Shown piece by piece: positions 19,200 through 39,919 of a stretch of DNA of 64,000 nucleotides. The DNA comes from Bacteroidetes bacterium 37-13 (GTDB lineage Bacteria; Bacteroidota; Bacteroidia; Chitinophagales; LD1): assembly GCA_001897535.1 (NCBI GenBank), contig MKTC01000040.1:186001-250000 (forward strand), read 5' to 3'. The notes under the pieces are model-generated. The model worked only from the letters and a program-made list of their open reading frames with translations, was not told where the DNA came from and did no database searches. The translations under genes were made by a program, and so were the position numbers. Positions within the stretch are counted from its first letter, which is position 1, and the number at the start of each line of letters is the position of its first letter.

Positions 19200-19304
19200 A
19201 TGAATTCTACCTTACTTCTTACATTAGATCCGGGCATGTATTTTATCTATGCTGCGAATAGCAATAATGAACTTATTATAAATTTTTTTGATTTTGTAAA
19301 ATGA
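19200..19304 (+). CDS. Possible 34-residue peptide overlapping the gwsS-like start
   Basis: An ATG at 19200 opens a 34-codon frame whose TGA stop overlaps the ATG of the next gene (ATGA at 19301-19304). The product includes LDPGMYFIYAANSNNELI, which loosely resembles the end of a T9SS sorting domain (PxGxYfI ... K). The frame is open back to 19125 without another ATG. It has no double-glycine leader and is not a recognisable ATP-grasp or precursor. It may be a remnant of a lost upstream gene, a coupling peptide, or chance. Confidence 0.25.
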   Translation: MNSTLLLTLDPGMYFIYAANSNNELIINFFDFVK

Positions 19305-20396
19305 TTGTTTACAAATCTTTTGAAGATATTAAATTTGCAAAGGGATTTCTACGTGGACTATCAATAGATTTAACAAGAGAATCCTGGAACTATATACCCA
19401 ATGAAGTTATTGATACAGTTCAGCGGATAAATGGAGTTTACGTTAATGATTCTACTTTAAAAGAATATCAAGTGATTTTAAATAAATACGATAATATCCT
19501 TTTTTTTTAAATGCCCTGCTTCATTGTTATCTAATTTTGCGCCTCTTACCGAGCATTTCTACCAACCCAGCCATTTTAGCTCCGCTGTTATCTTTGTTAG
19601 TCAATTATACCCATCTTATTTGGATTGTTTATTTAAGCAATTAGAAGTAAGTAATTGCCATGATATTGCACTTGTATTTGAAAACTACTTTGACAGCCAA
19701 TTACTTAGGAAAAATATATCAACATCAGGCTTTGAAAATATTGAAATATATATCAATAAAAATTATCTAAAGGATTTAGATGAAATCATACAAATATGGG
19801 AGTCGGAGCCAAGAATAAATAATATTTTCATTTTTAACTTTTCACATGACACGATAATTGTTAAAGACGATTTAACAGGGTGTTCAATTATTGGAGTAAG
19901 TCAACCTTTTAATGTTGCTCAAAACTATATAAGTAATAGCGAACACTATTTTCAAGTAACTATTGATATTTATATGGAAGCATTAAGGCATAATCTTTTT
20001 TACAACAAGAAAATATTTATTGATGGAGAAGGTACAATATATAACGATGTAAATTTAACGAAAGAATTTGGAAATATTACCCAAATAAATGATTTAAAGG
20101 CACTATCTGAAAATGCTGATTTTACTTGGCATTGGCATATTCCTAAAACAGAGATAGACATTTGCAAGCATTGTGAATTCCGCTATTTATGCTTAGATTC
20201 TAGAGTGCCTATTAAAAGAGAAAGTGGCGGCTATTATCACGAATTAGAATGTAACTACAATCCATTTATTTGTAAGTGGAAGGGTGAAAATGAATACTTA
20301 ACATTGAAAGAGGTTGGTGTTGTATCAAATTCTGAGGAATATACCATTGATTATGAAAAGTTAAAGACTATAAATAACATACTATGGGGAAGTTAA
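19301..20396 (+). pseudogene. gwsS: GwsS-like SPASM-domain peptide maturase, frameshifted
   Basis: Two frames, 19301-19510 and one that continues to 20396, form one protein of about 364 residues if a T9 run at 19500-19508 is read as T8; the join then reads NILFFKCPASLLSNF. Overall layout and the C-terminal segment IDICKHCEFRYLC ... LECNYNPF match the SPASM-domain maturase of grasp-with-spasm RiPP systems, which modifies ribosomal peptides together with an ATP-grasp enzyme. Of the usual SPASM cysteines the C-x2-C-x5-C set and the last Cys are kept, but the earlier pair around the IFIDGEGTIYND strand is missing. No ATP-grasp partner or precursor gene is adjacent. Base composition is more AT-rich than the flanking genes. 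Probably a decaying relic; a sequencing error in the homopolymer would restore the frame but not the missing partners. Confidence 0.7.
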
Positions 20397-26659: not shown

Positions 26660-27016
26660 CCGGATTCCCTTTGCAATTTCCTTTTAAAAAACACTGATTT
26701 TTTCACAACAAAGCAGCTGAAACCAAGCAGCGGCAATGGTTTTAAGTGTTTTCATGTTGTTTGTTTTATCATAAAAATAGGAACAAGCAAAACCTTTGTT
26801 CTACGGTAAAAAGATTAGAAAGGTTACACGCATACAATTAGAAAGCCTAATTTACAATACAATTAAGTAATTGATTATCAATGATTTAATTTTTTATTCT
26901 TTAAATATGTAACTTCAACAAAACTATAAAAGTGTAGAACACAAGGGGTGTTCGAGCAACTATGTTTGCATTATGTAAACGATATTGTTTACACAAAAAC
27001 AAAAAACATCTGAATT
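26660..27016. other. Control region upstream of the repeat-peptide gene
   Basis: A 357-bp non-coding stretch. Its right half holds ATTGAT-T-ATCAAT (26870-26882), GAACAC-N5-GTGTTC (26937-26953), a -7 box TATGTTTG (26961-26968) and TGTAAAC-N6-GTTTACA (26974-26993). The left half shows no clear element. No ORF of substance was found on either strand. Confidence 0.6.
26937..26993 (+). promoter_or_regulatory. Promoter flanked by two perfect inverted repeats
   Basis: TATGTTTG (26961-26968) matches the TAnnTTTG -7 element. The spacer to the -33 area is occupied by GAACAC-AAGGG-GTGTTC (26937-26953), and TGTAAAC-GATATT-GTTTACA (26974-26993) begins at about the predicted transcription start. The first palindrome is placed where a repressor or activator dimer would contact polymerase; the second could be an operator or a 5'-end mRNA hairpin. 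No clear TTTG -33 box is present, which suggests activator dependence. The binding proteins are unknown. Confidence 0.55.
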
Positions 27017-27370
27017 ATGGAACTATTACTTGCAATCTTAATTTCTCTAACACTTGGAGGAGATACAAAAGGCTACGAAGGTGGTTATGGCGATTTATTT
27101 TTAAAAGCTAATCCAACTGATGTTGCTGCCAAACTTAGCGACATTAAAATCACCGGAGGTTACGGAGATTTATTCCTAAAAGATTTGTCTGCTGATGAAA
27201 TTCAAAAAATTCAAGACGACATTAAAATCACTGGAGGCTACGGAGATTTATTCTTGAAAGATTTATCTCAAGAAGAGGTTGAAAAAATCGCAGGTGATAT
27301 TAAAATTACCGGAGGCTATGGCGATTTATTCTTGAAAGAGTTAGAAAGACTTCAAGCTTCCCAAAAGTAA
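27017..27370 (+). CDS. Small repeat protein with four GGYGDLFLK motifs
   Basis: A 117-residue protein of no recognised family. After a short hydrophobic N-terminus (MELLLAILISLTLGGD) the sequence consists of four copies of GGYGDLFLK (the last three preceded by IT) at a strict 26-residue (78-bp) period. Between copies lie amphipathic, helix-prone segments such as DLSADEIQKIQDDIK and DLSQEEVEKIAGDIK. Those linkers resemble the LSxEExxKIxGG pattern of double-glycine leader peptides, but repeated. Third-position differences between repeats with unchanged residues (for example GGTTAC / GGCTAC / GGCTAT for Gly-Tyr) indicate purifying selection. It has its own regulated-looking promoter and a strong terminator, so it is monocistronic. 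Possible roles: repetitive RiPP-type precursor, self-assembling or surface peptide, or ligand-binding repeat; none is proven. Confidence 0.8.
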   Translation: MELLLAILISLTLGGDTKGYEGGYGDLFLKANPTDVAAKLSDIKITGGYGDLFLKDLSADEIQKIQDDIKITGGYGDLFLKDLSQEEVEKIAGDIKITGGYGDLFLKELERLQASQK

Positions 27371-27390: not shown

Positions 27391-27438
27391 ACTATTGCAA
27401 TAGTATCTACAAGCGAGTCAATATTGGCTCGCTTTTTT
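27391..27438 (+). terminator. Rho-independent terminator of the repeat-peptide gene
   Basis: GCGAGTCAAT-ATTGGCTCGC (27413-27432) pairs along its whole length apart from one G-T wobble and is followed by TTTTTT (27433-27438). A second perfect palindrome, ACTATTG-CAATAGT (27391-27404), lies just upstream. The T tract is on the plus strand, so it ends transcription of the repeat gene. Confidence 0.8.
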
Positions 27439-27500
27439 ATTTTGTACTAAATAGGCAAGCAAAAGCGCGATTAACTGATTTTTTTTTTAAAAAGGAATAA

Positions 27501-37168: not shown

Positions 37169-37333
37169 TTAATCTATAAATATTTTTCGCGAATAAAAAC
37201 CAATGAAAACGAATGGCTTGCTATATTTTGTGAAATACATTTTGGTAAAACTTATTTCGATTGTTTGTGGAAGCAGAAAATTCTACTTGACAAATTTAAC
37301 GTTCTGTGTTATTTTCACTACTCCCGAAGAAGT

Positions 37334-39919
37334 ATGAAGAAATATAAATTTAAGTCGTTAAAAGTTTTTGCTTCCGATGAATGGCTTGCGAACAGAACCC
37401 GTGCATACCGAACAGTTTTCGACCGTATGGAAACTGCATACATAAATGGCGAACTCGCTTTCTACAATAAACTTTTTGATGAAGAAGAATGGGAATGTGT
37501 AGTTATGCTAAAAGCATTTTCGCACATTGGTGGTGAAAAAAAAGAACTCTGCTGCCAAGAAGAAAAGCGAAAAGTGAGAACAGATGAAAATATTGTTCAC
37601 CTACACAAAGGCTGGGGAAACACCAACGCAGGCTTGTTTTGGACACATGGCGAATATAGCTGGGAAGCGTATATTGATGGCGAATTAGTAGGCTTTAGAA
37701 AGTTTTTTATTGAAGATGCAGGCAGTGTTTCAGCAAATAGTAATCCGTTTTTCGACTTAGAATCTCTGCGATTTTTTTCGGGAATATACTCAGCCGTAAA
37801 CGAGCCGGAAAAAACTTATTTGAAAAAAATTTCGCGAAGTAAAACACCGTATTTGTATGTAGAATTTAAAATTAAAAACCGTCTAAATACAGATTGGAAT
37901 TGCGAGTTATTTTTTAATTGGTACAATGCTGCCGGAATGTTAAAGGCACATATTGAACGCCAACGAAGAATTGAAGCCGGCAACGAAGGTGAAATTTTTA
38001 CCTTTAACGAAGGTTGGGGAAACGATTACCCCGGCACCTGGCAAGACGCACATTACAGGCTCGAAGTGGTGTTTATGGGTACGGTTGTAGCTGTGGTGCA
38101 TTTAGAAACTGGCAGTGAAGATGAAGAAGGCGATGTGCCAATAAATAATATTGCTCACGCATATATTGCACCGGCTAATGCGCAACCAATTGAGCCAAGC
38201 GAATCGCTCGCAGCGCAGATGGATAAACTGGAGCAATTAGTTGGTTTGGAAGATTTAAAATCAGAAATAAAGAATCACATTAAGTATTTAAACTTCCTGA
38301 AACTTAGGCAAGAAAGAGGCATTAACGAAGAAGGCAGTATTTCTTTACACAGCGTGTTTACGGGTAACCCGGGAACAGGAAAAACAACTGTGGTAAAAAT
38401 GCTTGGACAAATTTACAAAGGCATGGGTTTGCTTAGTAAAGGACATGTAAAAGAAGTGGATAGAAGCCAGCTGATTGGCGAATATATCGGGCAAACAGCA
38501 CCTAAAGTAAAGAAAGCATTAGAAGAAGCGAAAGGTGGAATTTTGTTTATTGATGAAGCTTATTCGCTTGCGCGCGAAGCAGATGACTCTAAAGATTTTG
38601 GACGTGAAGTGATTGAAGTTTTGGTGAAAGAAATGAGCGATGGAAATAAAGATATTGCCATTATGGTTGCAGGCTATCCGCGCGAAATGGAAAAATTTCT
38701 CGATTCAAATCCTGGGCTAAAATCACGCTTTAATCAGTTTTTTAATTTTGAAGATTATTTGCCTGAAGAACTGCAAGAGATTGCACTTTTAGCAGCCAGC
38801 CAAAGCACAGTTTCTATTACCAACGATGCACAAAAGTATCTCTTCGATGCGCTCACAGAAGCATTTAGAAATAGAGATAAAACCTTTGGTAATGCGCGTT
38901 TTGCTCACTCTGTAATTGCTGAGGCGAAAATGAATTTAGGCTTGCGGATAATGAAGAGAGATGATGTAAATGAGCTTTCGCAAGAGCAACTTTCGTTAGT
39001 TGAAGTAAGCGATATAAAAAAGGTATTTGATACCAAACGCAAACGCAAAGCAAATATTAAGGTGAATGAAAAATTACTGAAAGATGCGCTGAAAGAACTT
39101 GATGCATTAGTAGGTATTAAAAATATAAAAGAGGAAATTTATGAGTTAGTGAAACTGGTTCGCTTCTACGAAGAAGAAGGAAAAGATATTTTGAATCGTT
39201 TTTCATTACACAGTGTTTTTATTGGTAATCCAGGAACAGGAAAAACAACTGTAGCACGCATTGTAGCTAAAATTTACAAAGCTCTTGGATTGCTGGAACG
39301 CGGACACACAGTAGAAGTTGATAGGCAAGGTTTGGTTGCGGGATATTTAGGACAAACTGCAATAAAAACAGACGAAATTATTAATTCTGCAAAAGGTGGA
39401 GTGCTGTTTATTGACGAAGCATATTCTCTTGGCGAAGGCAACGATTACGGTAGAGAAGCAGTGGAAACTTTGCTAAAAAGAATGGAAGATATGCGTGGAG
39501 AATTTGCAGTAATTGTAGCTGGCTATACCGAGCCAATGGAGCGGTTTGTTAATTCAAATCCGGGCTTAAAATCGCGCTTCGATAAAACATATACTTTCAA
39601 CGATTACAGCATTGGCGATTTGTGCAATATTGCCATGTCGTTACTCAAAAAAGAAAGTTACCAGTTAGATGAAGTTTCGCAAAAATATTTAGAAAAATAC
39701 ATCACCAATTTGTTTGAAAACAGAGAAAAACATTTTGGCAACGCACGTGAAATTCGTAAACTGGTGGAACACGCTATTCAAAACCAGCACTTGCGTTTGG
39801 CATCGCTTGCAAAAGAAGAACGCGCTAAACAAAATCTTTCTTCTATCACCGAAAATGATTTAAAAGATTTAGAAGAAATTACTTCTAAAAAGCGCGGACT
39901 TGGTTTTCGGTATAGATAA
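37334..39919 (+). CDS. Tandem AAA+ ATPase, CbbX/SpoVK-type, with repeated N-terminal domain
   Basis: An 861-residue protein with two AAA+ modules. Module 1: Walker A GNPGTGKTT from residue 344 and Walker B GILFIDEAYSL (Asp407/Glu408). Module 2: the same Walker A from residue 631 and Walker B GVLFIDEAYSLGEGND (Asp694). Each module carries the CbbX/CfqX features PGLKSRFN/D and FGNAR(F/E). The first ~290 residues hold two copies of an all-beta-looking unit, recognisable by GWGNTNAGLFW ... AYIDGELVGFRKF and GWGNDYPGTWQ ... VVFMGTVVAVVHLE. ATG at 37334 chosen. CbbX-like AAA+ proteins remodel other proteins; the client here is unknown. No helper gene is adjacent. Confidence 0.85.
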   Translation: MKKYKFKSLKVFASDEWLANRTRAYRTVFDRMETAYINGELAFYNKLFDEEEWECVVMLKAFSHIGGEKKELCCQEEKRKVRTDENIVHLHKGWGNTNAGLFWTHGEYSWEAYIDGELVGFRKFFIEDAGSVSANSNPFFDLESLRFFSGIYSAVNEPEKTYLKKISRSKTPYLYVEFKIKNRLNTDWNCELFFNWYNAAGMLKAHIERQRRIEAGNEGEIFTFNEGWGNDYPGTWQDAHYRLEVVFMGTVVAVVHLETGSEDEEGDVPINNIAHAYIAPANAQPIEPSESLAAQMDKLEQLVGLEDLKSEIKNHIKYLNFLKLRQERGINEEGSISLHSVFTGNPGTGKTTVVKMLGQIYKGMGLLSKGHVKEVDRSQLIGEYIGQTAPKVKKALEEAKGGILFIDEAYSLAREADDSKDFGREVIEVLVKEMSDGNKDIAIMVAGYPREMEKFLDSNPGLKSRFNQFFNFEDYLPEELQEIALLAASQSTVSITNDAQKYLFDALTEAFRNRDKTFGNARFAHSVIAEAKMNLGLRIMKRDDVNELSQEQLSLVEVSDIKKVFDTKRKRKANIKVNEKLLKDALKELDALVGIKNIKEEIYELVKLVRFYEEEGKDILNRFSLHSVFIGNPGTGKTTVARIVAKIYKALGLLERGHTVEVDRQGLVAGYLGQTAIKTDEIINSAKGGVLFIDEAYSLGEGNDYGREAVETLLKRMEDMRGEFAVIVAGYTEPMERFVNSNPGLKSRFDKTYTFNDYSIGDLCNIAMSLLKKESYQLDEVSQKYLEKYITNLFENREKHFGNAREIRKLVEHAIQNQHLRLASLAKEERAKQNLSSITENDLKDLEEITSKKRGLGFRYR

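What the first reader, a model, noticed from the sequence alone, without database searches (positions are those of the whole stretch)
27017..27370. Four-copy GGYGDLFLK repeat protein of unknown family
The gene encodes four GGYGDLFLK motifs at an exact 26-residue (78-bp) period, joined by helix-prone linkers. Codon third positions differ between repeats while residues stay the same, so the repeats are old and selected. I do not recognise this family. A 117-residue stand-alone gene with a strong terminator and no operon partner is a candidate for a new class of repetitive peptide.
Basis: partly seen in the sequence, partly recalled or inferred. Interest (0 to 1): 0.8.

Follow-up and report, generated by a model that had tools for sequence, protein, structure and literature searches.

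The report
Genus-restricted four-copy GGYGDLF motif protein
A small stand-alone bacterial gene encodes four nearly identical copies of a short peptide motif joined by fast-changing spacers; it is real and under selection, but it was found in only two species of one genus and its function is unknown.

Summary
ORF 27017-27370 encodes 117 aa with four GGYGDLFLK copies, spaced 25, 26 and 26 residues (not an exact 26), with its own terminator and no operon partner. A second species of the genus (G002) carries two 106-aa homologues, one after panC-aroE as here, one elsewhere. They also have four copies, but one spacer is about 10 residues shorter. Between species the motifs are under strong selection (dN 0.06, dS 0.73), whereas 34 of 48 aligned spacer codons change residue. 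No other homologue was found in about 1,000 genomes searched, nor by an exact-motif scan of GTDB species genomes, nor in phage, plasmid, Pfam, NCBIfam, PHROGs, PADLOC or PDB searches. A 21-bp palindrome 23 bp before the start codon is identical in all three copies and occurs nowhere else in the three genus genomes with fewer than three mismatches. Best reading: a lineage-specific array of short linear motifs behind a conserved hydrophobic N-terminus, acting through the repeated motif rather than a rigid fold. Release as peptides and a beta solenoid remain open. Graspetide (grasp-with-spasm) membership is not supported: its ligase is missing from both genomes. A new orphan family of moderate interest, not a demonstrated new class of peptide.

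The parts
27017..27370 (+). Coding sequence, 117 aa, four GGYGDLFLK motifs
   Evidence: homologues in G002 at 62% identity
27017..27061 (+). Conserved hydrophobic N-terminus MELLLAILISLTLGG (residues 1-15); short, no positive charge
27080..27106 (+). Motif copy 1 GGYGDLFLK
27155..27181 (+). Motif copy 2 GGYGDLFLK
27233..27259 (+). Motif copy 3 GGYGDLFLK
27311..27337 (+). Motif copy 4 GGYGDLFLK
26973..26993 (.). Palindrome ATGTAAACGATATTGTTTACA, identical in all three copies; candidate operator or 5' RNA hairpin
26961..26968 (+). TATGTTTG, candidate Bacteroidota -7 promoter element (TAnnTTTG), present in all three copies; G at -9 is atypical
26937..26953 (.). Inverted repeat GAACAC-N5-GTGTTC; arms change together in G002 copy L002, one mismatch in copy L025
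26870..26882 (.). Inverted repeat ATTGATTATCAAT, conserved in all three copies
26791..26825 (.). AACCTTT / AAAGGTT inverted repeat near the upstream end of the conserved (and in G002 duplicated) module
27411..27444 (+). Intrinsic terminator, 10-bp stem and T-rich tail

Best explanation
A lineage-specific, single-gene array of short linear motifs. Shown: the gene is conserved and maintained under selection, and its conserved parts are the first 15 residues and the (IT)GGYGDLFxK motifs, while the spacers vary in sequence and length. Inferred: the hydrophobic N-terminus attaches the chain to, or feeds it into, the membrane; the four motifs act as repeated binding sites (multivalent display) for one unidentified partner, with the acidic spacers as flexible tethers; a dedicated promoter with its own dyad controls expression. 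Expression, location and partner are not shown.
For: Motif codons dN 0.06 and dS 0.73, N-terminus dN 0.17 and dS 0.85, spacers 34 of 48 codons changed residue, against aroE dN 0.31 and dS 1.6. Spacing varies 15-26 residues. Two G002 copies differ only at three synonymous sites inside the ORF, although the 620-bp module is 95% identical overall. Neither AlphaFold2 model is confident. No shared neighbour at the second G002 site and no recognised maturation or export gene beside any copy.
Against: No partner, location or expression data. The hydrophobic segment is only about 13 residues and lacks the positive charge usual in signal peptides, so membrane targeting is uncertain. Low model confidence may only reflect a two-sequence alignment. 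The same conservation pattern fits a cleaved precursor.
Confidence: 0.4

Rival explanations
1. A multi-copy peptide precursor: the chain is exported and cut to release four near-identical peptides containing GGYGDLFxK, as in alpha-factor-like or multi-core RiPP precursors.
For: Invariant short cores, variable spacers including a shortened one, conserved N-terminus ending in GG, and a conserved Lys closing each core. Multi-core precursors exist in bacteria (PMC5934393).
Against: No maturation, protease or exporter gene recognised at any of the three sites. The grasp-with-spasm ligase TIGR04192 is absent from G000 and G002, and the SPASM maturase TIGR04193 from G002. No Cys in either protein. 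No conserved residues on the outer side of the cores that would mark cleavage sites.
Confidence: 0.25
2. A small beta or beta-alpha solenoid, in which each repeat forms a strand-turn-strand unit (IKIT-GG-YGDLFLK) followed by a helix, perhaps membrane-anchored or self-assembling.
For: One AlphaFold2 model shows strand-strand-helix units. Weak resemblance to beta-repeat proteins: DUF4097 (E 0.033, below cut-off) and a repetitive SYGN/SYGD frame in L143.
Against: Model pLDDT is below 70 everywhere and the homologue's model is all helical. The third G002 spacer lost about 10 residues, breaking the register. Spacers show no sequence constraint.
Confidence: 0.2
3. The conserved object is mainly a DNA or RNA element (dyads and leader), or a mobile cassette, and the encoded protein is unimportant.
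For: Conserved dyads upstream; the whole 620-bp module was duplicated to a second site in G002.
Against: Motif codons show protein-level selection and the duplicates differ only synonymously in the ORF but more in the flanks. No Rfam match at threshold, folding z only -1.6, no covarying pair in the predicted fold. No mobility gene near the copies.
Confidence: 0.05

Closest known systems
Multi-core graspetide precursors (for example AMdnA of Anabaena sp. PCC7120, PMC5934393)
   Same: One chain with an N-terminal conserved segment and several repeated short cores carrying Thr, Asp and Lys residues
   Different: No ATP-grasp ligase next to any copy; TIGR04192 absent from G000 and G002; the core does not match the microviridin core TX1KYPSDX2D/EE/D quoted in that paper
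Peptide pheromone precursors with tandem copies (yeast pro-alpha-factor type; from general knowledge)
   Same: One chain carries four near-identical short units separated by variable spacers
   Different: No classical signal peptide and no conserved processing sites flanking the units; a bacterium
DUF4097 'toastrack' and similar beta-repeat proteins (PF13349)
   Same: Repeated strand-turn-strand-like G[DN][IL] pattern
   Different: Match is below the Pfam cut-off (14 against 22.9 bits); spacing is irregular and spacers are unconstrained

Membership tests
Graspetide / grasp-with-spasm precursor | Cognate ATP-grasp ligase (TIGR04192) encoded in the genome, usually alongside | tested here: not met
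   No match in G000, G002 or G001
Graspetide / grasp-with-spasm precursor | SPASM peptide maturase (TIGR04193) in the genome (grasp-with-spasm type only) | tested here: not met
   Absent from G002, which has the repeat gene twice; G000 has two sub-cut-off matches, one frame-disrupted
Other RiPP classes | Any other modification enzyme family in the genome | not tested
   Only the grasp-with-spasm models were searched genome-wide; Cys-dependent crosslinks within the peptide are excluded because neither protein has Cys
DUF4097 (PF13349) | Score over the Pfam gathering cut-off | tested here: not met
   14 bits against 22.9; no match listed for the G002 protein
DUF4649 (PF15507) | Score over the Pfam gathering cut-off | tested here: not met
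   23.1 bits against 27 over 23 residues; 10.3 bits for the G002 protein
Multivalent linear-motif protein | A partner that binds the motif | not testable with these tools
   Needs pull-down or two-hybrid work

The most novel reading that the evidence does not exclude
A genus-specific tandem peptide precursor in a Bacteroidota-like bacterium: copies of (IT)GGYGDLFxK are released, possibly as a signal or bacteriocin-like peptide, under a dedicated operator and without adjacent maturation genes.
Probability: 0.15. Interest if true: 0.7.

Novelty: new variant of a known kind. Interest (0 to 1): 0.36.

Why it matters
It is a clean case of an orphan gene whose constrained unit (a motif of about 11 residues) can be read directly from two species, so its function can be tested with short synthetic peptides and motif mutants. 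If the peptides are released it would be an unusual bacterial multi-copy peptide precursor; if not, it is a new lineage-restricted repeat protein.

Tried and rejected
Pfam, NCBIfam, PHROGs, PADLOC and PDB sequence searches gave only sub-threshold or chance matches. A scan of GTDB r220 genomes for GGYGDLFxK gave 25 loci, all single matches in unrelated frames, several of them SlyD-like or DnaJ-like by eye. Viral contigs, phages and plasmids gave nothing. A profile of the two proteins found only this genus in 399 order-level genomes; among 395 class-level genomes only weak hits to long unrelated frames appeared. A weak DNA hit in G001 (L042) lies inside an unrelated ORF. The upstream region as a structured RNA: no Rfam family at threshold, folding z -1.6, no covarying pair in the predicted consensus fold. 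Codon usage as a proxy for expression: average and uninformative, since the reference region was not purely ribosomal. A link to the nearby SPASM gene was considered and rejected. No structure-library search was run because both models are too poor. No held paper contains GGYGDLF.

Full report
What is there. The ORF at 27017-27370 (+) is as described: 117 aa, MELLLAILISLTLGGDTKGYEGGYGDLFLK..., with four GGYGDLFLK copies at residues 22, 47, 73 and 99. The period is 25, 26 and 26 residues, not an exact 26. A TGA two codons upstream in frame makes this ATG the first possible start. Four copies of a 9-residue word are far beyond chance: in 20,000 shuffles of the same composition the longest word found four times was 4 residues or less. 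The neighbours are panC and aroE upstream, with a 357-bp gap after aroE, and metH convergent downstream. A 10-bp stem-loop with a T-rich tail follows the gene.

Relatives. In 100 related genomes the only significant homologues are two in G002, of the same genus. One lies after panC-aroE as here, but with different genes downstream (L025). The other lies between genes that read, by eye, as a pyridoxal-phosphate deaminase-like gene and an aminopeptidase-like gene (L002, L129). Both encode the same 106-aa protein. G001, the third genus member sampled (93% complete), has no detectable copy and none after aroE. A two-sequence profile found nothing else in 399 order-level genomes, and in 395 class-level genomes gave only weak hits to long, unrelated frames. 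An exact-motif scan of GTDB r220 genomes gave only single chance matches; records of very near genomes may be left out of that scan. Phage, plasmid and viral collections gave nothing. Library searches found no family.

What is conserved. Between species the motif codons (with the preceding IT) have dN 0.06 and dS 0.73, and the N-terminal segment dN 0.17 and dS 0.85, while 34 of 48 aligned spacer codons change residue; neighbouring aroE has dN 0.31 and dS 1.6. Across all eight motif copies the only residue that varies within GGYGDLFxK is the eighth (L, F or Y), with 81 synonymous and 17 non-synonymous codon differences over the 28 pairs. In G002 the last interval is 15 residues instead of 25, and the DGANIT before its fourth motif repeats the sequence before its first motif, which suggests recombination between repeats (inference). 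The two G002 copies share a 620-bp module, 95% identical, from the AACCTT inverted repeat to the terminator. Inside the ORF they differ at three synonymous sites only. Gene conversion could also produce this, so it supports selection but does not prove it.

Control region. The 21 bp ATGTAAACGATATTGTTTACA at 26973-26993 are identical in all three copies, although aligned upstream blocks are mostly 40-75% identical; all other matches in the three genus genomes have three mismatches. The only TAnnTTTG upstream in each copy is TATGTTTG, here at 26961-26968. By the Flavobacterium johnsoniae consensus (PMC6847099) this would place the transcript start at about 26973, exactly at the dyad, although a G at position -9 is atypical. 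A second dyad, GAACAC-N5-GTGTTC at 26937-26953, keeps its pairing through a paired change in one G002 copy and has one mismatch in the other. Operator and 5' hairpin are both possible; no RNA family matched at threshold and the fold is not unusually stable.

Mechanism. Short motifs held fixed while spacers change in sequence and length fit an array of linear motifs, either displayed (best guess, 0.4) or cut out as peptides (0.25). They fit a solenoid less well (0.2): the two AlphaFold2 models are poor and contradict each other (mean pLDDT 47 with strands and helices; 39, all helical). The hydrophobic N-terminus is conserved but short and without positive charge, so anchoring or export is inferred, not shown. 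A reading in which only the DNA or RNA matters (0.05) conflicts with the codon pattern.

Compared with known systems. A frame-disrupted SPASM maturase of the grasp-with-spasm type lies 6.6 kb upstream (19301-20396), which raised the graspetide idea. The ligase TIGR04192 is missing from G000 and G002, and TIGR04193 is missing from G002, which carries the repeat gene twice. Membership is therefore not supported, although other RiPP enzyme families were not searched. Multi-core precursors are known (PMC5934393), so the resemblance is one of layout.

Verdict. A real, selected, genus-restricted orphan with a dedicated control region. It is unusual enough to test, but nothing yet shows a new class of peptide.

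Noticed in passing
window 19301-20396 (+): Matches the grasp-with-spasm SPASM maturase TIGR04193 (101.5 bits, below the 175-bit cut-off) but the reading frame appears split at a run of eight T near 19500: pseudogene, sequencing error or slippage. No ATP-grasp ligase of the system (TIGR04192) was found in this genome, and a second partial SPASM match lies at G000:C40:78847-79101.
   Followed up: partly
L129 9490-10097 and L130 9481-10100 (G002): The whole promoter-gene-terminator module (about 620 bp, 95% identical) is present twice at unrelated sites with no recognised mobility gene, so it moves or duplicates as a unit.
   Followed up: partly
window 37265-39919 (+): 884-aa protein that appears, from reading its sequence, to carry two tandem AAA-type ATPase modules after an N-terminal domain; not searched against any library.
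   Followed up: no
L091 2918-3398 (G023, downstream of aroE): A non-homologous tandem array encoding repeated SEHFRSLSDEFRKV-like units, apparently a short DNA repeat read in more than one frame.
   Followed up: no
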